The notes beneath the pieces are model-generated. The model did no database searches and was not told where the DNA came from. It saw nothing but the letters and a program-made list of their open reading frames with translations. A stretch of DNA of 64,000 nt from Owenia fusiformis (Eukaryota > Annelida > Polychaeta > Sabellida > Oweniidae): NCBI GenBank assembly GCA_903813345.2, contig CAIIXF020000012.1, forward strand, positions 7,091,615 through 7,155,614. The letters are read 5' to 3'. Positions 11,401-57,400 of the stretch are shown piece after piece. Each line of letters begins with the position of its first letter. Positions within the stretch are counted from its first letter, which is position 1. The position numbers and the translations under genes are program-made.

Positions 11401-14400
11401 TATTGCGGACTTGGTCCTTCCTAGTCCTACTAGGTTTGGGTCGGGTGGCATGTCCTATGATAACGTTATACAATTATTAACTTGTAAAAAGTAAAATGTT
11501 TTTTTTGCTGAGATGGAATCTTGACTTGATCTTGATGGAATCCTGAGCCAGATCTAGTTGCCATATTAGTATATTTAATTTTATTGAGCCTTGAGACCAA
11601 CAAGGAATCTGGCAGAGGTCTGTGTGTTGTGACCACATATTTGTTGAGCCACACTTAACTTGCATTCCTTATCTTCTTATTCTTATTCCAGGAAGCTGTA
11701 GAATTTTTCAAAACACAACTCTCCACATTATGTGTTGCCATGACGAAGCTACAGGAACAAAGTGGTATGGAAAAAGGGGAGGAGCCTGAGGAATTACAAC
11801 AATTGAGAGAAACTCTAGGAATAGAACTGCCTACTAATGATGCTCCGCCCACTTCTCTAGAGACAGCCACACCCACTCAACCAGTTGTTCCACAGTCTGA
11901 TCATCAATGTCAATCTAATCAAGATCAATCACGTATGTGTTTACATCTCACTTTGAAAAAGTGCTGTATTGTCATCTTGTGCTGCTACCACCACAAGTGG
12001 TGACATATTGTCTTGCACTGATGTGTCTGCATGTGGACGCCACAAAAATCTTGTCATCAAATCAGGAAAACTGCTGACCTGTTCAACTTGAAATCTTTAC
12101 AGATTCAGAAGCAAACTAGTGACAATATGTAAGATCTGATTAAATTTTGGGCATACTTGGTAGATAGCATGGTGACCGTTTTGCTAGATCCAAAGTGTAA
12201 TAATTATTACTGTGTGTCTTGAGAGGATACCACTTAATTCTGCACAAGCTATGACTCCATTTGTAAAACATTTGTCCCTCCTTTGGTAGAAACATTTGAA
12301 GAGCTTTATCTTACCAATGTCATCTCATTTTCAGCTGAACCATTAGACACAAGTGAACGACAGAATAGTGACTTAAGGGCACAATCTAGTGAGATGATAT
12401 CACTAAGTCCTGCACAAGTTATGACTCCATTTGTAAAACATTTGCCCCTCCTTCGGTAGAAAAATTTGAAGACCTCTTATCTTACCAATGTGATCTGATT
12501 TCCAGCTGAACCATTACACACAAGTAAACCACAGAATAGTGACTTGAGGACACAATCTATAGAGATACTTATACCACTTAGTTAGATTAGATTTATTTCC
12601 ACACAATTTAGTTCTGCACAAACTTTTGCCCCTCCTTTGGTTGAAACATTTGAAGAGTTATTATCTTACCAATGTGATCTTATTTCCAGCTGAACCATTA
12701 CACACAAGTGAACCACAGAATAGTGACTTAAGGGCACAATCTAGTGAGATAATTCCAGTTAGTTCAAAAGAGTTCATGTCAGTTTCCTCTTTAATACGAG
12801 GGAGAGTAAAGCTAGAAGATGTTAATAAGGTATGTTTTTTGTAGTTAAGTTAACAAATAAGCTAAGCTCCTACCATTTACTCATGGAATTCAGACTAAAA
12901 GGTTGTTCCAGTTTTTATCATCATTGCCATTTTATGATTCCTCTTTGTTTTCAAATGATTGGCAACTGATTCAAATTTTGGTAATAGTTGACTGTGCGTG
13001 CAGACTGCAGGGGCTGTGGAGCTTTATCATGTCACAACCAAAAAGTGTTGATGTATTGTTATGTTCTCCGTTTTTTTGTGAAAGCCGTTGGTGGTTGGCG
13101 ATCGGCGGTTGGTGATCGGCGGGTGGCTGTTTACGTCTGTAACAAATTCTTAAAACTTCAGAGACCTTTTCAAGGTCAAAAGGTCTTTTTTCAGCTTGCT
13201 TCAAATTGACCAATTTTTTTTCAAAATCATATACAAGTTATCAGAAGTTCAAATCTGACTTTAGATTTAAGATTTGACCTTCTCAAGGTCAACAAACGGT
13301 CAAAAAGGTATTTTTACAGCTTGCTTTATATTGATCGTTTTTTCGAAATCATCTAGAAGTTCTCAAAAGTTCAAATCAAAGATTTCACCTTCAATGAGCT
13401 TCTCAAGGTCAATGAAGGTCTTTTTCAACTTGTTTCAAATTGACCAATTTTTGCAATGATTGCAATTATTGTGCAGTAAAAAGTGGAACAGTGGCTTTCA
13501 TCAAAGTGTACACCAAACATAAAATGTACATAAACTCACCTCATGTGTTTTTCTTCATTGTTGCAGACATACCAGATGATATGGACAAGATTTAAAGAAG
13601 AAGGCAAAACGTAAGTTGAATGATTATTCACTAGGATCCTTCAGAGTGCAGCTTCATATATTTTAAAATACCTTGTTCTCTCTTGTTCTTTTCACATTTT
13701 CAGCTCCTAAATTTAGATATTAAGCTGTTTGATATTTTATTCCAATCTCTGAGTAATTTATTCAGTCCTATCGTGTTTTCTGTCTTGAAGTTGTTTGATT
13801 TCACAAATATTGAGTTCATTCAATGTTGTTTCACTAAATGTAAAGGGAAAATTCCTTGTTAAGAATTGTGTGCGTTGAAAAATTCAAAAACATTTGTCTA
13901 GAGATTTAACATCCTGATTTCAATTAAATTACAACATTTCCCAAGAGTATAAAGGGTATGAATTTAGGATCAGCAGAGGCAAGGAATGTACTGAAATTAC
14001 TTTATTTCTCTTCTACTTCAGAGATCCCCTCACTCCAGGAGACATGTACAAGATGGGACTTAAAGTGACTGGCCAGACAGGAGAGGCAAAATTAAAGGTA
14101 AGTATTCAATTTTGCACTTTATTTAAAACTCTAATTTTTAGTCTAGTCTTTTAAATGTTGTTGACTACTATATGTCTTTCATAAGGCATCTAAAGAGTTA
14201 ATAAAAGATACATACTCCCAGAGTATCTTTTCACTCTTTGGATATTGAATTTGAATATTGGGCATGCTGGGTAAATGACATAGTGGCTATATTGACATAG
14301 GAAATTCTGTTTAATATCAAATTTTTATCAGAATTCCAGGAAATTTGCGCCCATTTAACTTGAAACTTTACGAGCACATTTTTACCATTTTGAAGTTAAA

Positions 14401-16077: not shown

Positions 16078-17847
16078 TTATTTATGAACAATATACACAC
16101 CTTTTGGGTTGATTTGAAAAATTCTAAAATAGCTATGCAAGGGAAACCCAGTAAAGACTCGTTTCTGAAAATATCGATGAACGACATAGTTTAGTATTCC
16201 CATATCGCAGTTCATATCTGAAGGGGCTTCATTGAATGCCTCCGTCATATGATGAAGAAATTCCAAAATTATACTCCTGCTGCCACCTATTATTCCAGCA
16301 TTATAGAGAAACTCTTGTTTATGAATTGCATTGACCTTTTCACTTGCGGTTTTTCCTAAACAGTTTTTATAAAGATTATTCACCCATATGTTAGAGGTTG
16401 ATTGCTGAAATTCACATTTATCTTGACCTACATATAACAGATCCTCGTTTATGAATCCCATCAATTCAAATGGGTTTTTCAGAAATTTGACATCAGCTAT
16501 ATCGGTGAAAAGCACCCATTTTAGTTCTGGGTGATTTTTCACATACTCGTAATAAATGTAAAATCTGGCATCATTCACTGAGTTTGGACCGAGATCAGCT
16601 TTAACAAATGAGACATTCTCATTGGCTACTCTGGTTTTGAAATCGAGGTCAAGGTTATCATAGAAAATTAATCCTTTCATGCCTACATCTTGAAGACTCC
16701 AATACCATGCAGCAAAGTACTTGAAATTGTTTGTGCTCTGATTGGTCGGTCTTTGGGGGTCCTGTTTACTTGTGAAATATGTACTGAAAACTGCAGAGTT
16801 GAGTTTACTAGGATAAATATCTTTCTTCATTCTATTGAACCAAATTATATGCTTCAGAATTGCATCTTTTATATTAGTTTGAGCCATGTATGAAAGACCT
16901 ACATCACAATTGCAAATTAATTTTTCGACGTCTGCTGAGGCAAATGCATTATGGGAAGTGTATGTATTATATCCCATGATATCTAAGATCATTGATTCAA
17001 TCATAGAAAGGTTTGCTTGTAAGTAGCACTCTATAGAAGACCTTTGGAATGTTGCTGTATTTTCACGAAGATGCTGAACTAAAAAAGCAGCTTCTTTGGA
17101 GGATAGATAGTGTAGAACTTTATTGGTTGTCTCCTGTTTGTTTTTATTAGGAATAAAATTATGCTCCACATTTCTTATAAAAGTATGAACATTTGAACCA
17201 ATGCAATATGGGCCCAACAAGATTGGAACTTTGAGCAACAAGACTTTATTTTGTTTGCTATATTTGTGTATGACATAATCTACAGCTCCTTGCCAATCAT
17301 CTGGTAAACTGTCTTCTGCAATATCCATTGCATTATGGGTAATTATTGTAATATTAACAGAGTTCCTTTCAATTGTATCCAAAATGGCTGCCAATTTTGA
17401 CAACTTATCTCCATTTGTATTGACAATGTCAATTATTAAAATATTCACCATTTTGATCACTGTATTATCCACATCAGACAGAATTGTAATGTCACTACCT
17501 GATTGTTTTAAAGATTCAATAATGTCCTCCTTGAGTTGTGTATTTAAAGTAGGATTGAATCCATTTTCGGGTGCCAGAGAATTATTAAAGCAATCGACCA
17601 CCTGAATGGTATGGCTGTTCAATAAACTCACTAAAGGTAGCGTGAGACAACTTATTCCAAATATTAATATAGTTGATTTTGAATTTTCTTCGATTTGATT
17701 TTTACCTTGTCTGGTGTATATTTGATAATCATAGATTTTGTTGAATTCGTCTGTGTGTATATACTTTAAAAGAATATAAAATAATATGCATTTTATCAAA
17801 ATCAAAATTCCTGACACCAAAATAACAAATTTAGTCTTGAATTTCAT
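16078..17847 (-). CDS. membrane-anchored SDR-like/GT-A glycosyltransferase fusion, intronless
   Basis: A single uninterrupted 589-aa frame. Residues about 8-29 are a hydrophobic segment after a short basic start, the usual signal anchor of a type II Golgi enzyme. Residues about 60-330 look like a degenerate extended short-chain dehydrogenase/epimerase: an early ILIFGIS strand, NILIIDIV, ITIITHNA and a late KVPILLGPYC like the R-VYGP segment of sugar-nucleotide epimerases. The GxxGxxG loop is not intact, so catalysis is doubtful. Residues 376-589 look like a GT-A glycosyltransferase: KYFAAWYWSL, a DxD-like VLFTDIADVKFLKNPF (445-460) for metal/nucleotide-sugar binding, and LYNAGIIGG (514-522). 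The acceptor substrate cannot be told. Lack of introns in an intron-rich region suggests a retrogene or horizontal acquisition. The start is preceded by about 90 bases and then satellite DNA. Confidence 0.75.
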   Translation of the reverse strand: MKFKTKFVILVSGILILIKCILFYILLKYIHTDEFNKIYDYQIYTRQGKNQIEENSKSTILIFGISCLTLPLVSLLNSHTIQVVDCFNNSLAPENGFNPTLNTQLKEDIIESLKQSGSDITILSDVDNTVIKMVNILIIDIVNTNGDKLSKLAAILDTIERNSVNITIITHNAMDIAEDSLPDDWQGAVDYVIHKYSKQNKVLLLKVPILLGPYCIGSNVHTFIRNVEHNFIPNKNKQETTNKVLHYLSSKEAAFLVQHLRENTATFQRSSIECYLQANLSMIESMILDIMGYNTYTSHNAFASADVEKLICNCDVGLSYMAQTNIKDAILKHIIWFNRMKKDIYPSKLNSAVFSTYFTSKQDPQRPTNQSTNNFKYFAAWYWSLQDVGMKGLIFYDNLDLDFKTRVANENVSFVKADLGPNSVNDARFYIYYEYVKNHPELKWVLFTDIADVKFLKNPFELMGFINEDLLYVGQDKCEFQQSTSNIWVNNLYKNCLGKTASEKVNAIHKQEFLYNAGIIGGSRSIILEFLHHMTEAFNEAPSDMNCDMGILNYVVHRYFQKRVFTGFPLHSYFRIFQINPKGVYIVHK

Positions 17848-17939
17848 TGTTATTAGGTTCTTGGGAGCTCTATCATTCGTTTCGATGTTATTCCTAATCT
17901 ATTGTCATTAGGTACTATTTCAAAAGCTGTTCATTCAAT

Positions 17940-24074: not shown

Positions 24075-25350
24075 TTATGTCCCCACCACATAGTGTGGGG
24101 CCATATTGTCGGCCTAGGCGCGTCCGTCTGTCCGTCCGTCTGTCCGTCCGTCTGTCCGTACGTCCAGGGGTTTTCTCCAAAACCGCTACAGATATCACCT
24201 TCAAATTTTCAGGGATAACTTATGAGTGCATACAGATGTGGATGAAAAAATCTTAACTCGATACCTACTTCCTGTCGGCCATTTTGAAGTCAAATGCTAA
24301 AATCCTTGTCGATAATACTTTGTATCATATTGAATGGTGTTTTTGAGTTTTCATACTTTAACTATTTAGTAGCTTTATAAATAATTTCAGATGTACTTTC
24401 TTGTAAAAGCCTATGTTATTGTTAACAGTAGTTATATGTGATAATTTTGTAAGAAGAAATTAGCAAAAACACTTAATCACTTTTTTATTGTCGGCCATTT
24501 TGGATTTTTCCGTCCTAAAATCTTGTCTGTGAAGTCTTGTCTACGTGTTTTTAGGTGAACCGTTTGGTGGATCAATTTCAAATTTTCAGGGATGATTCTT
24601 AGTATAAAAATCTAGATCTGATTTGTTTTTTGGCATTCTGGGTAAATGTCAAGGCAGCCATTTTGGATTTTCCGTCCTAAAATCTTGTCTGTAAAGTCTT
24701 GTCTACGCGTTTTCAGGTGAACCGTTTGGTAGATCAATTTCAAATTTTCAGAGATGATTCTTAGTATGAAAATGTAGAACTGATTAGTTTTTTGGCATTC
24801 TGGGCAAATGTCAAGGCAGCCATTTTGGATTTTCTGTCCTACAATCTTGTCTGTAAAGTCTTGTCTATGCATTTCCAGGTGAACCGTTCTGTAGATCAAT
24901 TTCAAATTTTTAGGGATGATTCTTAGTATGAAAATCTAGATCTGATTAGTTTTTTGGCATTCTGGATAAATGTCAAGGCAGCCATTTTGGATTTTCCGTC
25001 TTAAAATCTTGCCTGTAAAGTCTTGTCTACGCGTTTTTAGGTGAACCGTTTGGTAGATCAGTTTCAAATTTTCAGGGATGATTCTTAGTGTGAAAATCTA
25101 CATCTGATTAGTTTTTTGGCATTCTGTGTAAATGTCATGGCAGCCATTTTGGATTTTCTGTCCTAAAATCTTGTCTGTAAAGTCTTGTCTACGCGTTTTC
25201 AGGTGAACCATTTGGTAGATCAATGTCATATTTTCAGGGATGATTCTTAGTATGAAAATCTAGGAACAGATTAGTTTTTATGTCCCCACCACATAGTGTG
25301 GGGCCATATTGTCGGCCTAGGCGCGTCCGTCTGTCCGTCCGTCTGTCTGT

Positions 25351-26432: not shown

Positions 26433-28198
26433 GTAGACACTTCTTGTGTGGCATTCCCTGAAAATCCAAAATACCACAGTAGATGGGTTTTTACATCCAT
26501 TGAGAGATTTTGTTGTGTGGATAACCACACAAAAAAATTAACCACAGAAGCTATTTATTTTACTACCCGAACAACCACACATACCCCCATTCAAGAACAC
26601 GGTGTCCGTCTGTCTGTCCGTCTGTCTGTCCGTCCGTACGTCCGGCAGTTTTCTCCAAAACCGCTACAGATATCACCTTCAAATTTTCAGGGATAACTTA
26701 TGAGTGCATACAGATGTGGATGAAAAAAAATTAACTCGATACCTACTTCCTGTTGGCCATTTTGAAGTCAAATGCTAAAATCCTTGTCTGCAAACTTTAA
26801 GAAAAACGGCATCACCGTTGCTTTTAAAACTTTAACATCTTGTTCAGCTCACTTCATTCTAGATCTGATTAGGTTTTGGACCTGTTAGCTCAGTCATGTC
26901 AGCCATTTTGAATGTTTTAAGAAAAGTTAGCGCACGATAATACTTTGTATCACATTGAATGGTGTTTTTCAGTTTTCATACTTTAACTTTTTAGTAGCTT
27001 TATAAATAATTTCAGGTGTACTTTGTTGTAAAAGCCTATGTTATTGTTAACAGTAGTTATATGTGATAATTTTGTAAAAAGATTTCAGCAAAAACTCATA
27101 ATCACTTTTTTATTGTCGGCCATTTTGGATTTTTCCGTCCTAAAATCTTGTCTGTAAAGTCTTGTCTACGCATTTTCAGATGAACCGTTTGGTAGATCAA
27201 TTTCAAATTTTCAGGGATGATTCTCAGTATGAAAATCTAGATCTGATTAGTTTTTTGGCATTCTGGATAAATGTCAAGGCAGCCATTTTGGATTTTCCGT
27301 CTTAAAATCTTGCCCGTAAAGTCTTGTCTACGCATTTTTAGGTGAACCGTTTGGTAGATCAATTTCAAATTTTCAGGGATGATTCTTAGTATGAAAATCT
27401 AGATTTGATTAGTTTTTGGGCATTCTGGGTAAATGTCAGGGCAGCCATTTTGGATTTTCTGTCCTAAAATCTCGTCTGTTAAGTCTTGTCTACACATTTC
27501 CAGGTGAACTGTTTGGTAGATCAATTTCAAATTTTCAGGGATGATTCTTAGTATTAAAATCTAGAACAGATTAGTTTTTGGCATTCTGGATAAATGTCAA
27601 GGCAGCCATTTTGGATTTTCTGTCCTCAAATCTTGTCTGTAAAGTCTTGTTTACATGTTTTCTGGTTAACTGTGTGACGGATCAATTTCAAATTTTCAGG
27701 GGTGGTTCTTAGTATGAAAATCTAGAACTGACTAACTTTTTTGGCATTCTTGGTAAATTTTAAGGTGGCCATTTTGGATTCTCCGTCCTCAAATTATGTC
27801 GGTAAAGTCTTGCCTACTCATTTTTAGGATAACCATTTGACGGGATCACCCATAGGTGGGGACATATTGTACACATTTGTGTTCTTGTTTGACATTCTGG
27901 GTAAATGTCAAGGCAGCCATTTTGGATTTTCCGTCCTAAAATCTTGTCTGTAAAGTCTTGTTTACATGTTTTCTAGTTAACTGTGTGACGGATCAATTAA
28001 AAATTTTCAGGGTTGGTTCTTAGTTTGAAAATCTAGAACTGACTAAATTTTGGGCATTCTGGGTAAATTTTAAGATGGCCATTTTGGATTTTCCGTCCTC
28101 AAATTGTGTTGGTAAAGTCTTAGTCTACTCATTTTCAGGATAACCATTTGATGGGATCACCCACTGGTGGGGACATTTTGTACACATTTGTGTTCTTG

Positions 28199-30065: not shown

Positions 30066-30236
30066 CACATTACACATATTACCAGGGGTATTGATCGCGA
30101 ATATACCCCGGGTGAAATGTTGACCTTGTTCATAGTTTATAGAAGGCGTGAATACAGTCATGTTCGAATACCAAATACAGTGTAATGTTTATCAAAGTCA
30201 CAAAGTATTTCAATGTGTTTTTCAGATGGTAGAAGC

Positions 30237-33200
30237 ATGAGCACAAAGAAGAATATTTTCTATGGGTCGGAGGATTGTTGTGGATTCTGTGGGGGTGGAT
30301 CAGAGACGCAAAATATTTGCGGGACTCTGTTTGCTTCTAAAGGATGTGTTGCACACAAAAAATGCATGGTAAGTAGAAGTACAATCAGATCATTATGTAG
30401 GGTATCAAGACTTTTCACCCCTTGGACATTTTACCCCTAGACTGTTCACCCTGTAGACATTTCACCCCATAGACATTTCAACCCTTAGACATTTCACCCC
30501 CTGGACATTTTACCCCCAGTCTCTATTTCACTCCAGTCTCTATGGCTTACTCTACATCTCTATATTATAGCAATACAGCTCAAATTTGGCACAGTATGAG
30601 AGTGATATGGGATTTGGAGGTTTCGAAATCGACGAAGTCCAGAAAGAAATGAGAAGAAGTCATAAGTTGGTGAGTAAACAAAAAGTCTGTTTTTCTGCCA
30701 CCACAAGAACTGGTGACATAAAATTGCTAGTGTCTAACTTTTTTATTGATGCTATTCAGCAGTTTGTGTTCGGTGTCTGTAACATCATTTGCAGTGATCT
30801 CCCCAGCATTAAAGCAAGTGGGCGTAGCACCTACCTGAGATTTTGAAAATAGGCTTGCACCCACTTTAAAATCCATTTGCAACCACTTAAAATGATAAAA
30901 ATCATGAAAAATTGGCATATTTTGACCAATTTTGTTCTGAATTGTGAAAACGAGAATTTTGCACCCACCTGAGAAAAAAATCCTGGGGAGATCACTGATT
31001 TTGCAGTGTCATTAGCAACAGGCTATTTTGGTTGGCTATTTTAACAATAATTGAATGTTGTTGTTATAGGAATTTTACATTTATTTCCATGTAATGCTAA
31101 AATGATTTTTAATAAATAGATTTGCTCATTGTTTTTCATTTTTTGCCCATTGTTTTCATTTGGTTTTCCCATTATTTTCATTTTTGCCTGTTGTTAGAAA
31201 TTCTAATGAAATCCTTGTTACATATATTTTCATTACTAACACTATGTTAATTCTGATAAATATTCCTAGGATTTGACATTCTTCAATTAAAAATTCCAAG
31301 TACTTGAAATCCAACAGGCTATTTGACACACTTAATAGATACTGACATTTAAGCCCAACTGACATTAATTTTTATATTTCAGACATGTTTTAAATGCAAA
31401 ACTGAGGGTAATACACATGCCAAGCGGGGCAGTGCTGGGTGTGCCTTTGACAAATGTGCCAAATCTTTCCATTATTTCAGACATGTTTTAAATGCAAAGC
31501 TGAGGGTAATACACATGCCAAGCGGGCCAGTGCTGGGTGTGCCTTTGACAAAAGTGCCAAATCTTTCCATTATTTCAGACATGTTTTAAATGCAAAGCTG
31601 AGGGTAATACACATGCCAAGCGGGCCAGTGCTGGGTGTGCCTTTGACAAATGTGCCAAATCCTTCCATTATTTCAGACATGTTTTAAATGCAAAACTGAG
31701 GGTAATACACATGCCAAGCGGGCCAGTGCTGGGTGTGCCTTTGATAAAAGTGCCAAATCCTTCCATTATTTCAGACATGTTTTAAATGCAAAACTGAGGG
31801 TAATACACATGCCAAGCGGGCCAGTGCTGGGTGTGCCTTTGACAAAAGTGCCAAATCTTTCCATTATTTCAGACATGTTTTAAATGCAAAACTGAGGGTA
31901 ATACACATGCCAAGCGGGCCAGTGCTGGGTGTGCCTTTGACAAAAGTGCCAAATCTTTCCATTATTTCAGACATGTTTTAAATGCAAAACTGAGGGTAAT
32001 ACACATGCCAAGCGGGCCAGTGCTGGGTGTGCCTTTGACAAAAGTGCCAAATCTTTCCATTATTTCAGACATGTTTTAAATGCAAAACTGAGGGTAATAC
32101 ACATGCCAAGCGGGCCAGTGCTGGTTGTGCCTTTGACAAATGTGCCAAATCCTTCCATTATTTCAGACATGTTTTAAATGCAAAACTGAGGGTAATACAC
32201 ATGCCAAGCGGGGCAGTGCTGGGTGTGCCTTTGACAAAAGTGCCAAATCTTTCCATTATTTCAGACATGTTTTAAATGCAAAACTGAGGGTAATACACAT
32301 GCCAAGCGGGGCAGTGCTGGGTGTGCCTTTGACAAAAGTGCCAAATCTTTCCATTATTTCAGACATGTTTTAAATACAAAACTGAGGGTAATACACATGC
32401 CAAGTTGGCCAGTGCTGGGTGTGCCTTTGACAAATGTGCCAAATCTTTCCATTATTTCAGACATGTTTTAAATGCAAAACTGAGGGTAATACGCATGCCA
32501 AGCGGGCCAGTGCTGGGTGTGCCTTTGACAAATGTGCCAAATCTTTCCATTATTTCAGACATGTTTTAAATGCAAAGCTGAGGGTAATACACATGCCAAG
32601 CGGGCCAGTGCTGGGTGTGCCTTTGACAAATGTGCCAAATCTTTCCATTATTTCAGACATGTTTTAAATGCAAAGCTGAGGGTAATACACATGCCAAGCG
32701 GGCCAGTGCTGGGTGTGCCTTTGACAAATGTGCCAAATCCTTCCATTATTTCAGACATGTTTTAAATGCAAAGCTGAGGGTAATACATGCCAAGCGGGCC
32801 AGTGCTGGGTGTGCCTTTGACAAATGTGCCAAATCCTTCCATTATTTCAGACATGTTTTAAATGCAAAGCTGAGGGTAATACATGCCAAGCGGGCCAGTG
32901 CTGGGTGTGCCTTTGATAAATGTGCCAAATCCTTCCATTATTTCAGACATGTTTTAAATGCAAAGCTGAGGGTAATACACATGCCAAGCGGGCCAGTGCT
33001 GGGTGTGCCTTTGACAAATGTGCCAAATCCTTCCATTATTTCAGACATGTTTTAAATGCAAAGCTGGGGGTAATACGCATGCCAAGCGGGCCAGTGCTGG
33101 GTGTGCCTTTGACAAATGTGCCAAATCCTTCCATTATTTCAGACATGTTTTAAATGCAAAACTGAGGGTAATACACATGCCAAGCGGGCCAGTGCTGGGT

Positions 33201-36200
33201 GTGCCTTTGACAAATGTGCCAAATCCTAACATTATTTCAGACATGTTTTAAATGCAAAACTGAGGGTAATACACATGCCAAGCGGGCCAGTGCTGGGTGT
33301 GCCTTTGACAAATGTGCCAAATCTTTCCATTATTTCTGCGCCTCCCAGGATGACAATTGTATAGCTGATCGCATGGTGTGCACTTTCAAGAGGAAAAATG
33401 AGAAGAAAAAGAGAACAGAGGTGCATTACAGGTAAGGAGATTTGAAACACCATATTGTGCTGATGGGCTTTAGTCTAGGCACCTGTGAAACTCTATGCAC
33501 CCTGTTGAAATAATATGCATCCTGTTGGAATTCTATGTAGCCTGTTGAAATTTTATACACCATATTGGAATTCTATATACCCTGTTGAAGTTTAATGTAC
33601 CCTGTTGAAATTCTCTGCACCATGTTGAAATTCTTTGCACCCTGTTGAAATTCTATGCACTCTGTTGAAATTCTATGCACCCTGTTGAAATTATATACAC
33701 CCTGTTAAAATTCTGTGCACCCTGTTGAAATTCTATACACCCTGTTGAAATTCTGTGCACCCTGTTAAAATTCTAGACACCCTGTTGAAATTATATGCAC
33801 CCTGTTGAAATTCTATGCACCCTGTTGAAATTCTAGCCACCCTGTTGAAATTCTATGCACTCTGTTGAAATTCTATGCACCCTGTTGAAATGATGTGCAC
33901 CCTGTTGAGGTTCTGTGCACCCTGTTGAAATTCTATGTACCCTGTTGAAATTATATACACCCTGTTAAAATTCTGTGCACCCTGTTGAAATTCTAGGCTC
34001 CCTGTTGAATTTATGTGCACCCTGTTGAAATTCTATACACCCTGTTGAAATTCTGTGCACCCTGTTAAAATTCTAGACACCCTGTTGAAATTATATGCAC
34101 CCTGTTGAAATTCTATACACCATGTTGAAATGATGTGCACCCTGTTGAAATTCTATGCACCCTGTTGAAATTCTAGCCACCCTGTTGAAATGCTATGCAC
34201 CCATCAAAAGGGAGATGTAGACCAAATAACTAAAATAAATGGTTAGCACCTGGTTGAGAAAATATGAGTGAGATCATGGTTAACTGTTTTTTTCTCAAAA
34301 TTGAGCCAGTTCAGTATATTGTAGTCTGATTGTAAAAACATGTCATGAAATATGTTTTTTATTTATAGGATATTCTGTGGAGATAAGCACAAAGAGATGT
34401 ATATTAACTTACTGAAAAGGAAAGCTGCAAACAAAGGCGAGGAAATGACTGGTAGGTATTACTAAATACATGTATAACATTAAAAGCTGCAAACAAAGGC
34501 GAGGAAATGACTGGAAAGGTATTACTAAATACATGTATAACATTAAAAGCTGCAAACAAAGGCGAGGAAATGACTGGAAAGGTATTACTAAATACATGTA
34601 TAACATTAAAAGATGTGAATCTTAAAAGACAGTCTGAATTTATTGTTTTTTCCAGATTAGAATATTTTCAGAATGGGTATAAAGCAAATACAATATCCTT
34701 CCAGTTAAGTTAAGAAATACCAGAATATAATGAATATCCAAAATCCAGAAAATATTCATTTTGTCTTAGAATTAACAAACAAACAAACATATTTTACCTA
34801 AAAGTTAGAATCTTGCAGTTACATATATGTATACACAATAATACCTATACACACAACACTATTTCTATAGAGAAACAGTTTTGGAAATACATTGTGTATG
34901 AAAATCACAGAAATGTCTCAAAGTGACATTAAGATTATGCTGCCCTTCAGAAAGATGTTTTTTACCATAAAACTTTTTAACTTGTAGGAGTCATATTTTG
35001 TGTAGTATTGTCTAGAAAAATAATGTCCTGTATGTTTCAGTTGAATGTGATACGCTATCAGATGACGAAGATGATGTTAATAATGATGATATTCCCAAGA
35101 AAAAACTTGTGAAAACCACCAAAAAGCTGATGCCAGCCTCTAGTGAATCTGACATTGGTGAATCGATGAAAAAAACAAAAACATCAAAAAGGGTTTCAGA
35201 TCAGTTTGAAATTGAAGGAATTGAGGCGTTTAGTACTAGTGCTAACTCTAGTAATGATGATTCGGATGATGAAAAACATCCTAAAAAGCCACGGGCCACA
35301 AAATCAAGAAAACGACAAACAGACGGGTCATATTCTCCTGTGGCTAAGAAACCCAAGCGTGATGAAAGTTCTGACATAAGTGATGAACAGTCTGCATCAT
35401 CATCGAAAAGGCTGTCATCAAAACAACCAGAAAAAGATGTTTCGAAAACAAAAGATGTCAAAAAGCCCACGAATGACAAGAATCTGGAGGGAGGTTTTAA
35501 AAAGAAAGCTGTGAATGATGAATCACCAACAATCATAAATGATGGAAAAGGTGACAGACTAAAAAAGAAGATGGTGGAAAATGAGAGCAACAAACGGCCT
35601 GTAGACATGAAAGGTAAATTTAATGCATTGGTACTTTTTGTTTGATAGAGGAAACTTGACAATGAAAATATTGAAGCCTATACATAAGAGATAGCTATTT
35701 TCAGTTGAATTATTCTGGTATGCCAGAGCCCCTCTTATCTGCCGATTTCACTTTGGAAGGATGAAGACAAAGGGGGCGTGGCTATATTGCGATGCAGTTG
35801 AATTAATAACTGAACAACTGGTTGGCAAAGATAGACAAATTCATATATAAGCCAGTTCAAAGTACATGTAGTTATAATAAATCACTTTCTGATTGACGAT
35901 TTCCAATAAGAACAATTAGATAAAATATGTCACATCATCATTGATCTCACAAAAAAAAATACAATATGTTTTCACATTTTCAGAAATGGCCCTGTGCTTG
36001 GTCGATGACACCCGTGCCCCAAACTTTGCCATAGATATCCGTGAAACAGTCCAGAGCATGGTCCATGCCAACTATAACCTCAATGGAGATTCTATTGCTC
36101 TCTATACAGAGACTTCTCGGTAAAACTTTAAATAAATTAGGCAGGGGTGTTGCTTAAACCAAAATTTTCTAGAAATACATTTTGTAGATTTTTTTAGATT

Positions 36201-48400: not shown

Positions 48401-51400
48401 AACATTAAAATTATAAAATTACATCAGGAAAAACAGGAAACAGGGATCATCTCAAAACATCAGTAAGCACTCAACAATTGAGTTAATTTGATCTGTGGTG
48501 GGTGCTTGGTAAAAGGCTATTGATATATATTTTGATTAAGCTTGATTGAAAACATTCATTTTTTGATTAAATGGCTGCGTACAACATCAATTCCATGTTT
48601 CAGTTTAGAGGGATAATGGGGATTAAAGGGGGAAAATAAATTAAGTTTGCTGTTTGAAAGGACCCCTTAGTTATGTGAAACAATTTTTTCACATAGATTT
48701 CCAAAATTTAATTTAGTTTCATTATTGTATAACCTCATGTTTTATATGTAAATGAATTGATATAAGTTAATATATTCATTTAAGTTAAAAGAGGTTATTA
48801 AAATAATTACTCAAATTTCTATTTGCCTTGGGCTTACAAAACTGACCTTTATCCCAATTTAGATCATAGTTTAATTATAAACTGCCTTTTAACCAAACTA
48901 TCAAATTAATTTGATATTAGTCTGATATCAAATTAATGTTAAAATTAAATTTTTAACAGAATAATAATTGTAATTGATGATTTTAGATTTTTTCAAAGCG
49001 AGGTATGAACTGACTTCTCGATCTAAATATTTTCAGTCTTTAATTTTATACTTTTCCTTTAAACTAAAAATGTGTTGTTTGATTGGTTTTCAGTATTTTC
49101 TTTGATTATTTCAAACAATGACGTTATGGATAAATTATCAATCAATTAATGAAAGAACAATTTAAAATTAGCGATGTGATGCTTTTATCATGGGCTTTCA
49201 CGAGAGCCCTTAATTTTGAAAGCCTATGCTTTTATGCATTACCAGGAGCATTTGTAAGGAAAATATTCCTTGGCTGTTAATGACACCTAGAATACCAATT
49301 TAAATGGAGGTACAGATATAATGTTGCTATGCCAAATATAATTAATGCACCAGGCTGTCTGCGCCCAAGTGAATCTGGCAGCTTGATTTCAGTTATAGTG
49401 TTACAACCCCTTGGCCCTGTTTCTCTGAAAGATTGTTAATTCATATTTGGCGAGTTCAATTAAATGTCATCTATAATATTGTCATAGTTACATCATTAAA
49501 AACAGATAGAATTCAGAAATAGTGATTGAGAAAATCTACTTGAATAATTGTTCTCATTTCCAATGTAATGCAGCATAGAAAATGGTGCAGATCTTAATGA
49601 CAAAATAAAAATTGGCTGTCAATTTTTTTTCCTGGGAGCAACATAGTGAATAAATTTCTCCACCCTTGGAGAATAAGTATCTTTCGTAAGACCCTCCTGT
49701 TGGGATAGAGAACTCTGTCAAATTCCCTCTCCCTAGGACAATACTGTGTGTCAAATTCCCCCGCGAACTTGCTCTTATCCAAAGCTTTGAATGGGGCACC
49801 GGGGCATAATTGTAAAGAGTTTCAATACTAAAATTACATACTTTGGTTTCCATTGGTCATGTTCACCATCTTCCTCTCTTTGCATCCTTTTCTCATTTTC
49901 TTCATCTTGTTTCGTTCTAAAAGGAGACTGCTTAGCAGATTTCTTCCTTGCCACATCTTCCTAAAAAATATTAAGAAATTAGTTTGATTTAGAACACAGC
50001 TTGTACAATTTTAAAGTAACTTAAAGATATTGTTTCATTCCTTAATAAAAGAAAATGAAAAATCTAATTAAGAATTTTGATAAAAAATTATTACATGTAC
50101 ATGTAAATGATGTGTTTTAATTAAGTAGATCATTTAGAAACAAAATACCTTTAGGAACAATATATTGAACTATCTATTTTGAACCTTTACCTGTATATTG
50201 AACTTTGGGCTCTCAAATGAAAATACTCTAACTCACTAAAGATCTATCAAAATTAAATATTTTAATCTTGGAAAATTTAATGCCAAATACAGTGATTTGT
50301 AAACTGTAATATATTGATCACAAAATACTTTTTAAATAAAAAACTTTGTTACCTACTGTTTCATTGTTAAAACTCCCTCAAAATAATACTATAGCTACAA
50401 GTTTTTAAGCCTGTGAGGCAATGCCTCATATCCGTCTGCTTTTTCTGTTGCATTATGGGATATCAATAAAAGCTAAATGATTCCAATGTTATAAATCACT
50501 CTCAAACTGCTTCTGATTTTTAAGTATGAAATGCTTCATTATATACCCAAATGTTGATTGTTCTATAAAAGTGCATTATGGGATACATATAATCGTGATT
50601 AACAAACATCGAGTAACAGATTGATCAGTTGAGTCTTATCAGACGGTTGATCAAACAATTGATGCATTGATATATCATCATCGGGGCATAATTAGATAAT
50701 AATTGTGCAAGATCACAATAAAATAGTAAATTAGTGTAACCTAGAGGCCTCCAACATAATATTAATATCACCCAACACAATTTTTATATCATCTAATAGA
50801 AACTGAGGGCATACAAATATATTTTAATTAATTTAATTGATTCAATGATCATTTTTAAAATCAAATATTAATAAAACAGACAAAATTGAGGACTGGCCAT
50901 GGAGACAGAGTTTATACAAGAACACAAATGTGTACAAAATGTCCCCACCAAGTGGTGATCCCGTGAAATGGTTATCCTGAAAATGAGTAGACAAGACTTT
51001 ACCAGCACAATTTGAGGACGGAAAATCCAAAGTGGCCACCTTAAAATTTACCCAGAATGCCAAAAATTTAGTCAGTTCTAGATTTTCATACTAAGAACCA
51101 CCCCTGAAAATTTGAAATTGATCTGTCACACAGTTAACCAGAAAACATGTAAAGAAGACTTTACAGACAAGATTTCAGGATGGAAAATCCAAAATGGCTG
51201 CCTTGACATTTACCAAGAATGTCAAAAAACTAATCTGTTTGTAGATTTTCATACTAAGAATCATCCCTGAAAATATGAAATTGATCTACCAAACGGTTCA
51301 CCTGAAAACGGGTAGACAAGACTTTACAGACAAGATTTTAGGACAGAAAATCCAAAATGGCTGCCTCAACATTTACGCAGAATGCAAAAAAAGTAATCAG

Positions 51401-54400
51401 ATGTAGATTTTCATACAAAGAATCATCCCTGAAAATTTGAAATTGATCTATCAAACCGTTCACCTAAAAACGCGTAGACAAGACTTTACAGGCAAGATTT
51501 TAAGACGGAAAATCCAAAATGGCTGCCTTGACATTTACCCAGAATGCAAAAAAAACAATCAGTTCTAGATTTTCATACTAAGAATCATTCCTGAAAATTT
51601 GAAATTGATCTACCAAACAGTTCACCTGAAAACGAGTAATCAAGACTTTACAGACAAGATTTTAGGACGGAAAATCCAAAATGGCTGCCTTGACATTTAC
51701 CCAGAATGCCAAAAAACTAATGAGATCTAGATTTTTATACTAAGAATCATCCCTGAAAATTTGAAATTGATCCACCAAACGGTTCACCTGAAAACGTGCA
51801 GACAAGACTTCACAGACAAGATTTTAGGACCGAAAAATCCAAAATGGCCGACAATAAAAAAGTCCTTATGAGTTTTTGCTGATTTCTTTTTACAAAATTA
51901 TCACATATAACTACTGTTAACAATAAAGTAGGCTTTTACACCAAAGTACATCTGAAATTATTTATAAAGCTACTAAATAGTTAAAGTATGAAAACTCAAA
52001 AACACCATTCAATATGATACAAAGTATTATCGCGCGCTAACTTTTCTTAAGACATTCAAAATGGCTGACATGACTGAGCTAGCAGGTCCAAAACCTAATC
52101 AGATCTAGAATGAAGTGAGCTGAACAAGATGTTAAAGTTTTAAAAGCAACTGTGAAGCAGTTTTTCTTAAAGTCTGCAGACAAGGATTTTAGCATTTGAC
52201 TTCAAAATGGCCGACAGGAAGTAGGTTTCGAGTTAAATTTTTTTCATCCACATCTATAGGCACTCATAAGTTATTCCTGAAAATTAGAAGGTGATACCTG
52301 TAGCGGTTTTGGAGAAAACTGCCGGACGTACGGACGGACGGACGGACGGACAGACAGACAACCAGACAGACAGACAGACGGACGGACGGACGCGCCTAGG
52401 ACGACAATATGGCCCCACACTTAGCGGTTTTGGAGAAAACTGCCGGACGTACGGACGGACGGACGGACGGACAGACAGACAACCAGACAGACAGACAGAC
52501 GGACGGACGGACGCGCCTAGGACGACAATATGGCCCCACACTATGTGGTGGGGACATAATAATAAAATGAAGGGTATTGGGTACACATCCTTGGGTCTGG
52601 CCGTTGATGCCTTTTCTGTCAAATGCTTTAAAGAAATTAAAGGATTGACTAATAATATAACTCATCTGAAATTATTTGTGGAGATTCTGCCAACATGAAT
52701 AATTCTTGGAAGTTATCTAAGGTTCAGAATCAAGAATAAAAAGATTTTCAGATTTTACTTAAACACAATGTCTGTTTAGCAGAATTTCATACAATTCTTT
52801 CTTTATTATTTTACTCTAAACTGGAAAACATGCTAAAACAACAATTCCGAAAAAAGGTTTTGGGTTAATCAGGGCATTTAATTTTTCAAGGAACTTATCC
52901 AACCTCCTTGTACTTATGATTCAGGCATTGTTATCATCATTCAAAAATGCTATGAAATGCAAGAAATGTTTTACATTTCATAAGAAATTGATTGTCTTAG
53001 GCTATTTATTGTTTGTTTATCTATTAATTTAATCATTTGATTATTTAGCGAGACAACATTCTTAAAATTGAAATTTGACAATTTTCTGGGCAGTATACAG
53101 TTGAATTTAAAATACTTAAAAATTAAAATGTCTTTATTTAAAAAAAATACTGAGACAATCTTGATTGCAATCGCTGCAGATAACCTTATCTTGAAGAAAT
53201 TTTTGATTTGAAAAACAGCTTGTATTTTGACTTTTGATCTTGAGTCACATATGCGCCAAAAACTAATGGCCAATTCTATAAATGTTTGGTCTGCATGTAT
53301 TTAAAATATATCATGTTTATATTGATTGGTGATATCGGTTATTGATTATAAAATATTAAATAGGAAGTTGTCTGTCTAGTAAATATTCAATCAAATTAAA
53401 CCAATCATTTATAAAACTTCTCATTTTGATGGTATTTCATGAACAGTGTATCTCTAATTTTCAGGGCTAAAGGAAATAATATCTAGAAAGTTGATAAAGA
53501 AAACATGTACAATGGCAAAGACTATCACACTGAATTTGAACTATTTTATAAGTATTGTGACATTTCACAAAAATATTTTTTCTTCTTTTCACAACCTTTA
53601 TTTTACTAAACAGGACGTTTCGGATCATATTTTACTAAACAGGACTATTCGGATCATATTTTACTAAACAGGACGTTTCGGATCATATTTTACTAAACAG
53701 GACGTTTCGGATCCTGTTTAGTAAAATAAAGGTTGTGAAAAGAAGAAAAAATATTTTTGTGATTTGATAATCCAACCTGAAGAACATGTTTAAAAAAAAG
53801 ATTGTGACATTTGTTTTATATAAGACACATTCAAGAATTAAAATGATGGTTAAACATAGTTATGGAGATATTGTTAAAATTCCGAAAGTTGATAAAATTG
53901 AATATATGGTTATTATGGGAAATGTATTTTTTAAAGCCAAATGAAATGTGATCAAACATTTAAGTGTTATTGTTAGAGGTTGGTGATTCTAACTGATGGG
54001 TCAGGGTATACATACCTGTTCTTCTTGTGGTAGGACACCTTCATTATAGATCTTCAACACAGCTTCTTTTAGTTTTTCTTTGTCTTGTTGTACCAGGGTT
54101 TGTATATTAAAGTGCTCCAGATATTTCTGTCTGACGATCTTCTGAGTCAGGGCTCTAGAAATAGATGACAGAACAAATGAAGACTTAAAGGGGCAGAAAA
54201 GAATAAAGAGTGAAAAAATGTTGGGGGAAATTTTTTTTCGAAGAATTTGGTCCCATTTCCATTTTAATCTAAATTCTATTATCTGGGGAAAAATTAAGAT
54301 ATTGATCAAATCAAGAGGTTATTATAGATCTAAGACGAAGAAATGTCACAATTCATTAGAATTAAAAAGAGGAAGGACAGTTTTCAGGAAACCTACCAAA

Positions 54401-57400
54401 TGACCTAAAAACAAAGTGTTGTCATGAAATAAAACCAAAATTGTCAGATGGATGGTCTGTTTAGAAAACAGGCAAAACGGAATGTTGCAAACAAAACATA
54501 TTATAAAATTGTGAGAATCTTTTATTAAGTAACTATAAATATGTCTTTATTCTATGCTGTTTAACTTTAACTTGGGTGATCATGTGTGTAAATATTGGCA
54601 TAGCTAGTTAAGTATATATTATCTCTAGCAAAACTATTTCTTTAAAGGGTTCCGATTAGCATCCCGTATAAAAACAACATGGCGGCTCCAGGCGAATCAA
54701 CTGGATCAGTCCATTTTTAAGAAATAAGGGGAGTTCTGTAAAATCCAGTTTATTGAAATTGTCTTTGAGATAAAGTAATCCGTTTATAATGATTTTGAAA
54801 ACGTTATCCAGAGTGATTGCGTTCAAAGAATACATGTACAACAGCCAATATAAATCCTTGTATTAGAAACCGGTTTGTCTCGCTTTGTTTCATTTGTAGG
54901 ATATTTCATATGCCAAGCTGTGTGCTATTACGTTATGGGGAAATTTAGATGCCAATTTTTCCTTATTGTACACAAATAGAAGATCCTGAAACTTCACCTA
55001 TAAATGTGGAATTGATTTGTCAAAATAAAAATCACCCTTTTATAAATGTGTGACGATCTATAATATACTTATGCTATATAACAGTTAGAGGTGTTGACAC
55101 AACGAACTCGAATCTGTGAACCCTTGAGTATTATTCCGGGATCGGGCCTCTTATACTAAACGGTGAGCAACACCAGAAACGAGCGTTCGATTTGCTAAAC
55201 GATATGTGTCACCCTTTAAGGCAAGGGTTTACCCCCCAAAAACAGATTTTTTCTGTTTCTGGATATAATGATATATCTTTTTTAAGAGTGGATGGATTTG
55301 CTTCAAATTTTCACACATTGTTTATTAGATCAATATAATTTTTGTGAAATTAAATTTTTGAACCTAATTAGCTTTTTATTTGGTCATTTGCATATTCAAA
55401 ATGGCCACCATTCATTTTGGGGGTTCAGTCGATTTCTGTATACAAATAACTTATAAACATGTATTTTGTGTACATATATTGCATTTTGATAACTTTATTG
55501 ATCACTATATTCATTGTACATATAAAATTACATTTTTTATCAAATGAATTACTAGATTTTGGTTATGAATTTTGGCAAATTAGCATTTATCGAAAAATGA
55601 CAACTGTTGAACATTAGGTCAGAATGTTGCCAAATTGAGAGCCTGTGTTGGGCCAAACAGCTATTCTTTATGTTTCTTTATGCACTATATAGTTTATATT
55701 ACATAGAAAATCAAATATATTCTTCCAAGTTATTATATATTTCATGTAAGGCTAGTGTGAAGTCATGGAAAAACATGAAAATAGCGAAAAAAGCAAAATA
55801 AATGGTCATTTACTTCAAATATGATATCTCTGCACCAAGTCATCAGAACATTGTAAAACTTGCTATATTATTAGTTCATATCATTATCTATGTGGTGAAT
55901 ATCAGATATCTTAGGAAAAATGTTGAACAACTTTGTTTTTGAATATTAATTGTTGGTGAAGAAAAATATTTCAGAAAATGTTTGACCCCCTACCATACTA
56001 TGCTACTTTCTGAAGTGTTCAAATGTGTTTATTTACTTAGTTCAGACATTTACCACATGCTAGATAGAGGAAAGATTAACTTGCTTTTTATTTGAACAAA
56101 AAAGCTTTAATACTTTTCGAGATATCTAATTTGAAGTAAAATTTCTTGTCGGAAAAAATGCGCTTTTGAGAAATCGAGCTTTTAGTAAGAATTTTATTTT
56201 TTTTTTCTTAAAAATGGAGATCTGACATAGATTTCAAGTCAAAATATCAATTTGATTAAACCAGTATCTTCATATAAGGCACATAGAGGTCCATGATCAT
56301 AATATTATGGAATTTAATGTCCACCTGCTAGATAATTGTCATTGTCAGGGCGAAGCATCCTATTGCGTCGCGCGCGAATTATAGCATTACAGCCAGCGAT
56401 ATATGCATAATCTACACGTTTCCCATCAATTGCTGCCATTGCTTTCAGAGTATAATAGCCTCCTGGCATCAACAGGTGTTCAAATATGGGTATCCTTCCC
56501 AATTCTCCATCATTGAACACTATAGTGGCATCATATACACCGATTTCGAGACGGGAGCGCCCGACGAATTGTGTCTTGGGAACTCGTTCCCAAATCAAGT
56601 TATGAAAATGTCCTTGAATGGATTTGATAGCCTTTTTGGTCAATTTATTTACGCCACCGATGCCTTTCACTGGCCTACCATTATCATCGACAAACGGGGT
56701 TGCTTTCAGTTGTGACACCTTATCTAACAGGCGTTTCCCCATCCTCTTTTGTATGTGGCCTGTGCACTCAAGTTTTGTTATATCAACATCTGGATATATC
56801 GGGGGATCTGCTTCTGCGACAGTTTTATATGCTTTGCTATCGCCATCTCCTAAAAATCCTGTATATCTTGAACTATGTTCAACTAGCGACCTGTTGAAGA
56901 TAGTTGCTGTACCAGCTGGCTCCATTGAACCAGCACTACCTATGTGGTTCTGTTGGCACTCATTTGCAGCTATGTGAGCCTCTTTCCAAACTGTAAAGTC
57001 AGCCTCTGACAGTTTACTTTTGTTCTTTGAACATTGGTTACAATAGTTCGACATAGTGTGAGTGTCCGCAACTTTACAGTTCTGCCCATTGACAGTAAGG
57101 GCCGTAACTACTCCATTTTTGCTTGAGAAGCCTCTTCGTTGCCAGGAACCATCCAACGGTAATGTCATGTCAATAATGTCATTAGGATGACAGTCTGGGT
57201 TGATAGAAACCCGAGCCTCTGTAACAGCAGATGCCATAGACTGCTTGGCTACCTTTCGTGTAGCAGTCAGGATTCTCTTCTTGTGCCGATTCCACGAAAC
57301 CTTTGCTTGTGGCTGAGGCATATTCATATTTCCTAGAAATCGCTGCGCTTTAGAGCGGTTACCCCCAATGGCGAAAGTTGACAAAACAAGTCTCCTGTTA

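What the first reader, a model, noticed from the sequence alone, without database searches (positions are those of the whole stretch)
31383..33431. Twenty tandem copies of a 3' splice site plus exon start inside one gene
The boundary of ePHD exon 3 is repeated 20 times, each with an intact TTATTTCAG acceptor, and only the last copy leads to the exon's remaining codons and donor. Entry at the preceding acceptor shifts frame to a stop, and entry further left meets a stop within two units. The splicing machinery must therefore choose the last of 20 near-identical acceptors, or else yield truncated or nonsense-decayed transcripts in proportion to wrong choices. Each unit also contains GAGG followed by gtaata, a potential donor about 25 bases after the acceptor, so recursive splicing through micro-exons is conceivable. 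Copy number would then act as a tunable control of protein output. The array is seen directly. Its function is inference.
Basis: partly seen in the sequence, partly recalled or inferred. Interest (0 to 1): 0.85.

Follow-up and report, generated by a model that had tools for sequence, protein, structure and literature searches.

The report
Tandem splice-site minisatellite, one of many
In one gene of what is probably a marine worm, the start of an exon with its splicing signal is repeated twenty times in a row and only the last copy can give the normal protein; similar repeats sit on exon edges of many other genes of the same genome, so it is one case of a previously named type of repeat that cells seem to splice around.

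Summary
A 98-bp unit (intron end + exon start of an ePHD zinc-finger gene) occurs 20 times; only the last acceptor (33241) gives an open frame. The array fits a birth by duplication across a 6-bp match between the acceptor (TATTTCAG) and the exon's own TATTTC.

It is not unique. Boundary-straddling arrays occur in 7 of 24 kinesin genes and 5 of 12 Cpn60/TCP1-family genes sampled, up to 18 copies (KIF4-like), though in 0 of 17 ADH/globin/linker loci. For KIF4, KIF2 and OSM-3/KIF17 relatives, reading from the outermost copy restores the conserved protein. All 75 decoy acceptors counted keep AG. Straddling exceeds random placement, even with boundary numbers tripled (classified by eye).

This is the 'mirage' minisatellite known from amphioxus, here in a probable annelid, Owenia-like. 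Most likely mechanism: exon definition pairs the donor with the nearest acceptor across the exon, so decoys are removed as intron. Dosage control and recursive splicing have no support here, but no RNA was available. The kind is known; its frequency and copy number seem new.

The parts
30226..30368 (+). ePHD gene, exon A (candidate start codon MSTKKN...; CGFC zinc ligands)
   Evidence: translation and splice signals
30571..30669 (+). exon B, phase 0, donor gtgagt at 30670
   Evidence: joined protein matches PHF6 ePHD
30670..31382 (+). intron before the first (original) acceptor, 713 nt; CTGAC branch-point-like motif about 20 nt before the AG
   Evidence: motif identity recalled
31375..33336 (+). 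98-bp x 20.1 array straddling the 3' splice junction of exon C
31383..33240 (+). 19 decoy copies (acceptor + exon start + cryptic donor GTAATA)
33227..33229 (+). TAA unique to unit 19, just upstream of the coding acceptor (TCCTAACATTATTTCAG)
33241..33431 (+). coding copy: exon C, the only acceptor with an open frame; donor gtaagg at 33432
34369..34451 (+). exon D, completes the ePHD (IFCGDKH); donor gtaggt
34421..34612 (+). [quoted passage not shown] exon joins the FIRST copy
35041..35600 (+). exon E (acidic); its 3' end is not settled, 35600 is only the cut used
12220..12763 (+). boundary array in another gene of the window: 184 bp x 3.1 over a 3' splice site; exon joins the LAST copy, donor gtatgt at 12830

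Best explanation
It is a boundary-straddling minisatellite of the kind called 'mirage'. Step 1 (inferred from sequence): a segment from the acceptor to about codon 31 of exon C was duplicated across the 6-bp match TATTTC, which occurs both in the acceptor and in the exon. The exon's own TTTCCATTATTTC thereby became the pyrimidine tract of each new acceptor. Step 2 (inferred): unequal exchange or slippage expanded it to 20 copies and keeps them similar. Step 3 (shown as frame logic, inferred as splicing): only the last acceptor gives protein; the 19 upstream copies are removed as intron. Step 4 (inferred): the choice is made by exon definition. The donor at 33432 pairs with the nearest acceptor across the exon (191 nt) in a gene with long flanking introns (713-2571 and 937 nt). 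Wrong choices give premature stops and are presumably lost to nonsense-mediated decay. The same tolerance would explain the similar arrays elsewhere in this genome.
For: The array is 20 units plus 6 bp TATTTC. Only acceptor 20 of 20 is open. Decoys vary like non-coding DNA: 9 of 13 distinct variants nonsynonymous (69%; 77% expected without constraint), including Cys to Ser at an ePHD cysteine shared with PHF6 in 7 of 19 decoys, a Cys to Tyr, a frame-shifting 2-bp deletion and a stop, none in the coding copy. Independent cases in kinesin and Cpn60/TCP1 genes: KIF4-like 159 bp x 17.9, OSM-3-like 93 x 3.9 and 42 x 3.5, KIF2-like 87 x 3.0, chaperonin-family 83 x 9.1 and 96 x 4.2. Reading from the outermost copy matches solved relatives: OSM-3 without gap (7a3z, 2.1e-63), KIF4 (3zfd, 1.5e-42; its one gap lies away from the joint) and KIF2A (2gry, 4.2e-15). 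Published rule: with flanking introns over 250 nt, sites closest across the exon pair; in minigenes with two identical strong donors the upstream one was used exclusively (PMC9225289, abstract and passages). Amphioxus mirages are reported not to disturb regular splicing (PMC3087553, passages).
Against: No RNA data, so the use of acceptor 20 is inferred. That the exon remainder follows the last acceptor copy or precedes the first donor copy is geometry of a straddling repeat, not independent evidence; only the conserved-protein checks bear on use. The coding acceptor is not stronger than the decoys: its pyrimidine tract is weaker (CCTAAC instead of C/TTTCC). The OSM-3-like 93-bp array began in an intron of about 107 nt, where cross-intron proximity would favour the FIRST acceptor, so exon definition alone may not cover every case. 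In the minigene paper weakened donors led to exon skipping in large exons, and the direct experiment concerned donors in human cells, not acceptors in annelids. The 6-bp match is clear only for this array; KIF4-like and OSM-3-like units carry filler bases at the joint.
Confidence: 0.74

Rival explanations
1. The array is a dosage device: a set fraction of transcripts picks one of the 19 decoys and decays, so copy number sets protein output.
For: Every decoy acceptor keeps its AG (19 of 19 here, 75 of 75 counted over eleven arrays) and every decoy path here ends in a stop.
Against: Similar arrays sit on kinesin and Cpn60/TCP1-family genes with no evident common regulatory logic; intact decoys are equally expected from young, homogenised repeats; conservation of copy number could not be tested.
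Confidence: 0.1
2. Exon C is not used, or the gene is decaying: the array marks a gene under relaxed constraint.
For: Skipping exon C or using any decoy gives a stop; no expression data back the gene.
Against: The coding copy and exons A, B, D and the tested part of E join in one open frame with an ePHD; in KIF4-, KIF2- and OSM-3-like genes the same architecture coexists with conserved protein.
Confidence: 0.08
3. Assembly artefact: true copy number is one or two.
For: Tandem arrays are hard to assemble; no reads were available.
Against: 15 distinct units with interspersed variants; arrays of different unit, length and copy number in 12 of 36 sampled genes; assemblers more often collapse than invent diverged copies (general knowledge).
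Confidence: 0.05
4. Recursive splicing through 25-nt micro-exons between each acceptor and the GTAATA donor, as in the potato RdRp case where a duplicated boundary activated a cryptic donor (PMC4974935, passages).
For: GGGTAATAC in 20 of 20 units; about 73 nt between donor and next acceptor is a possible short intron.
Against: 0 of 21,679 paths with 1 to 4 micro-exons keep the frame; no AG|GT ratchet site; the same cryptic donor lies in the coding copy and must be ignored there.
Confidence: 0.03

Closest known systems
[quoted passage not shown] PMC3087553 and PMC3902484, passages read; the founding Adh paper was not seen (a DOI recalled for it is not held)
   Same: Tandem units span an intron-exon boundary, carry AG/GT signals, authentic boundary at the edge, acceptor or donor side, similar units
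   Different: Probable annelid, not a cephalochordate; 20 and 18 copies against 2-7 quoted for BflGb6 and PGBD5; in 12 of 36 kinesin/Cpn60-family genes sampled rather than a few loci; splicing and polymorphism not tested here
Human internal tandem repeats at exon-intron boundaries in segmental duplications (PMC2812944, passages)
   Same: Minisatellites at exon-intron boundaries that affect, or are removed by, splicing
   Different: There: variable repeats between recent paralogues, with novel introns and alternative transcripts; here: no close paralogue, no new intron needed
[quoted passage not shown] potato RdRp, PMC4974935, passages)
   Same: Duplication of an intron-exon boundary with a cryptic donor inside the exon part
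   Different: No open-frame path uses the cryptic donor here, so no new intron with product
Cross-exon proximity rule of splice-site choice (PMC9225289, abstract and passages)
   Same: Predicts use of the last acceptor and first donor when flanking introns are long
   Different: A rule from human data; not a repeat family

Membership tests
Amphioxus-type 'mirage' boundary minisatellite | tandem minisatellite-like units that span an intron-exon boundary | tested here: met
   31375-33336, 98 bp x 20.1, over the exon C acceptor
Amphioxus-type 'mirage' boundary minisatellite | units carry usable-looking splice signals | tested here: met
   20 of 20 AG acceptors, 20 of 20 GGGTAATAC
Amphioxus-type 'mirage' boundary minisatellite | authentic boundary is the outermost copy, mRNA spliced regularly | not testable with these tools
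   frame logic agrees; no RNA
Amphioxus-type 'mirage' boundary minisatellite | length polymorphism between haplotypes | not testable with these tools
   one locus only in the assembly
Amphioxus-type 'mirage' boundary minisatellite | concerted evolution with edge copies excluded | tested here: inconclusive
   variants shared among nearby units, but the coding copy equals the consensus in its first 96 bases; in the KIF2-like gene the edge copy does differ from the decoys
Amphioxus-type 'mirage' boundary minisatellite | occurs in cephalochordates (where the cases read here were described) | tested here: not met
   annelid linker domain over its cut-off (annelid restriction recalled), 12 large contigs, no GFP-family match, the last a weak negative; taxon is history, not structure
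Recursive (ratchet) splicing | AG|GT ratchet point and restored frame | tested here: not met
   25 nt between AG and GT; 0 of 21,679 paths open
Intron gain by tandem duplication | new intron leaves a translatable product | tested here: not met

The most novel reading that the evidence does not exclude
In this animal, boundary-straddling arrays are a genome-wide, mutationally favoured class: exon edges are duplication hotspots, a large share of conserved genes carries 2 to 20 competing near-identical splice sites, and accurate expression rests on a strong cross-exon proximity rule. The arrays would then be a natural, polymorphic library for measuring splice-site competition and a nursery for new introns and alternative exons.
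Probability: 0.4. Interest if true: 0.8.

Novelty: new member of a known kind. Interest (0 to 1): 0.6.

Why it matters
Twenty (here) or eighteen (KIF4-like gene) almost identical acceptors compete in one transcript, and the protein survives only if the spliceosome takes the outermost one often enough. Such loci test directly whether site choice follows proximity across the exon, exon context or scanning. If a third of conserved genes carry them, gene prediction, dosage and intron gain in this lineage need to be re-examined. Mirages, a curiosity of amphioxus in the papers found here, would be a wider animal phenomenon.

Tried and rejected
Amphioxus as the source: first suspected from the mirage papers, dropped after linker-domain hits over the cut-off (3 matches, best E 5e-7) next to a globin cluster and 12 large contigs. 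The missing GFP match is a weak negative because no control genome rang. Molluscan haemocyanin and COX1 gave nothing.

Intrinsic strength of the last acceptor as the selector: rejected, its tract is weaker; the CTAAC created in unit 19 lies only about 11 nt from the AG, probably too close for a branch point (recalled rule).

Selection against decoy acceptors: no sign, but no power. By a rough hand count (no call) about 1.5 variants would be expected by chance in the 9-bp motif, and none is seen.

Random placement as the whole explanation of boundary arrays: weakened. A first count (6 of 14 and 6 of 16 arrays straddling) treated 14 uninspected arrays as non-straddling. Looking at them added three: 42 x 3.5 in the OSM-3-like gene, 48 x 5.3 (L068) and 28 x 16.6 (L075), the last two degenerate. 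The recount gives 8 of 14 against 1.59 expected and 7 of 16 against 1.30 (0 of 4,000 runs each); boundaries doubled, P 0.001 and 0.003; tripled, 0.006 and 0.0295. I classified by eye and unblinded and left out units under 25 bp. The window and KIF4-like arrays are not in this test. The novel reading was raised from 0.35 to 0.40 for this.

Weak positives: L045 and L068 (30 x 2) have about two copies; L069 and L080 have two. Leaving out genes whose arrays all have under 3 copies, 9 of 36 remain. For L040 the exon beside the array lies outside the motor domain and its conservation was not tested. L064 (36 x 1.9) stayed unclear and is counted as non-straddling.

ADH, globin and linker loci: TRF on 17 loci showed no unit of 25 bp or more on a confirmed exon edge; shorter arrays there were not checked against exons. 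The five ADH loci L014-L018 lie in long open frames (355-384 codons) and offer few boundaries. Two long-period arrays (L013, L017) could not be tied to a conserved exon; flank fetched for them was not pursued.

One search ran with exon E unbounded, so its micro-exon count is void; one search replaces it. One search is superseded. In one search the loose anchor also matched 14 non-acceptor places in the window array and 1 in L080; only places preceded by AG are counted as copies. L048's array runs off its locus, so its copies are a lower bound.
Full report
Observation. The array is real and at the stated place. TRF finds 31375-33336, period 98, 20.1 copies. A pattern count gives 20 acceptors from 31383 to 33241, 18 units of 98 bp and two of 96 bp, 15 distinct sequences. 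TTATTTCAG is a common word in this genome (21,566 hits on both strands, against 11,202 for the same letters reversed), as expected of an acceptor motif. Nineteen of the 20 copies have it; the first has ATATTTCAG.

The gene. Exons A (30226-30368), B (30571-30669), C (33241-33431), D (34369-34451) and E (from 35041, tested to 35600) join in one frame. Exons A to C encode an extended PHD finger: PF13771 at 6.1e-11, nearest solved relative PHF6 (4nn2, 6e-13), then PHF7. No close copy of exon C was found beyond the array; one other match is weak.

Frame logic. Of 20 acceptors only number 20 stays open. Number 19 meets a TAA of its own unit after 28 codons; 15 acceptors stop after 68 codons of the exon, number 14 after 132, numbers 15 and 16 after 21. 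Paths that include 1 to 4 of the 25-nt micro-exons: 0 of 190, 1,140, 4,845 and 15,504 are open; skipping exon C is not open either. Recursive splicing with up to four micro-exons therefore has no productive route.

Origin. The array begins and ends with TATTTC, once from the original acceptor and once from the exon's codons for Y-F. This is what a duplication across a 6-bp match leaves (inference). The exon's TTTCCATTATTTC became the pyrimidine tract of the new acceptors.

Decoys are not constrained as coding. Of 13 distinct variants in decoys, 9 change an amino acid (69%; 77% expected at random); an ePHD cysteine shared with PHF6 is lost in 7 of 19 decoys; two units lack 2 bp; unit 19 has a stop. 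The coding copy has none of these.

It is not alone. The same gene has a donor-side array (34421-34612) and another gene of the window an acceptor-side array (12220-12763). A kinesin search returned the same exon 18 times at 159-bp spacing in a KIF4-like gene. TRF on 30 kinesin loci (97,851 bp; 24 genes by my grouping on strand and distance; 144 matches in all were listed) gave boundary arrays in six genes, seven with the KIF4-like one, whose array lies outside its fetched locus. On 20 Cpn60/TCP1 loci (65,931 bp; 12 genes by the same grouping; 60 matches listed) five genes have them. Total: 12 of 36 genes; 9 of 36 without those that have only arrays under 3 copies. On 17 ADH, globin and linker loci none was confirmed; several of these lie in long open frames with few introns. 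Only units of 25 bp or more were considered in the kinesin and Cpn60 samples.

Use of the outermost copy. By the geometry of a straddling repeat, the exon remainder follows the last acceptor copy (11 arrays, two of the window and the KIF4-like one included) or precedes the first donor copy (8 arrays), so this pattern is no evidence by itself. The evidence is that in three kinesins this reading gives conserved protein: OSM-3 (7a3z, 2.1e-63, no gap), KIF4 (3zfd, 1.5e-42, one gap away from the joint), KIF2A (2gry, 4.2e-15). Decoy acceptors keep AG in 75 of 75 copies found with loose anchors. Decoy donors keep GT in L040, L057, L069 and L079, have a shifted GT in 34421-34612, and are eroded in L045, L068 and partly L075, so some arrays look old.

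Enrichment. In the Cpn60 loci 8 of 14 arrays straddle a boundary against 1.59 expected; in the kinesin loci 7 of 16 against 1.30 (0 of 4,000 simulations each). With boundaries doubled, P is 0.001 and 0.003; tripled, 0.006 and 0.0295. An earlier count before full inspection was weaker (6 and 6; tripled P 0.11 and 0.064). Boundaries came from profile matches and undercount the real ones, and I classified the arrays by eye, so a blinded whole-genome count is needed.

Mechanism. In human genes with flanking introns over 250 nt, sites closest across the exon pair preferentially; in minigenes with two identical strong donors the upstream one was used exclusively, while weakened donors led to skipping of large exons (PMC9225289, abstract and passages). 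Here the introns are 713 to 2,571 nt upstream and 937 nt downstream, so the last acceptor is predicted. Two results do not favour a simple story: the last acceptor has the weaker tract, and the OSM-3-like array starts about 107 nt after its donor, where cross-intron proximity would favour the first copy.

Source organism. Linker domain of annelid erythrocruorin (restriction recalled) over its cut-off beside a globin cluster, and 12 large contigs making up about 477.5 of 498.3 Mb. O. fusiformis has 505.8 Mb and 12 chromosome-scale scaffolds (PMC9977687, passages). Owenia is therefore likely, not proven.

Known or new. The structure matches the 'mirages' of amphioxus, described in Adh3, TnC, globins and PGBD5, reported not to interfere with regular splicing. 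My searches listed no report of them in annelids. An earthworm paper reports intronic minisatellites, and exon duplications absent from the transcript, in metallothionein genes (PMC12783039, passages); human boundary repeats are known in segmental duplications. Kind: known. Frequency, copy number and taxon: apparently new, within a library of open-licence papers only.

Noticed in passing
window 34421-34612: 63 bp x 3.1 donor-side boundary array in the same ePHD gene; the first copy keeps G|gtaggt, copies 2 and 3 read AAAG|gtatta.
   Followed up: yes
window 12220-12763: 184 bp x 3.1 acceptor-side boundary array in another gene; exon continues after the last copy.
   Followed up: yes
L062 (G000:C2:23265600-23270000, minus strand): 159 bp x 17.9 acceptor-side array in a KIF4-like gene; each decoy ends in an in-frame stop.
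   Followed up: yes
L056, 2206-2464: KIF2-like array whose decoys have drifted (ESLSALGHKG) from the conserved last copy (ECIRALGRKG).
   Followed up: partly
L036, 455-595 and 1805-2169: The OSM-3-like gene carries two acceptor-side arrays on different exons (42 x 3.5 and 93 x 3.9).
   Followed up: partly
L045 1598-1760; L068 2025-2279; L075 1934-2408 (gene orientation): Degenerate donor-side arrays in which many decoy donors have eroded: possibly old, decaying mirages.
   Followed up: partly
window 24494-25279, 27119-28150, 50976-51848: A 162-bp satellite unit appears in three places and both orientations, i.e. a dispersed repeat.
   Followed up: no
window 56314-57801 (-): Mutator-like transposase ORF of 495 aa, PF20700 at 2.3e-49.
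   Followed up: no
window 60795-61442 (-): Ulp1/C48 protease-like ORF, PF02902 at 8.7e-14.
   Followed up: no
window 16078-17898 (-): 606-aa uninterrupted ORF with no Pfam match over a cut-off.
   Followed up: no
G000:C222 (L073): Small contig with Cpn60/TCP1 exons and a 136 bp x 6.2 array; perhaps an unplaced haplotype.
   Followed up: no
L017 2975-3331 and L013 2949-3336: Arrays of 97 bp x 3.7 (with AGAAAG|GTAAGT on the minus strand) and 79 bp x 4.9 (with TTTGCAG) beside ADH genes, not tied to a conserved exon.
   Followed up: partly
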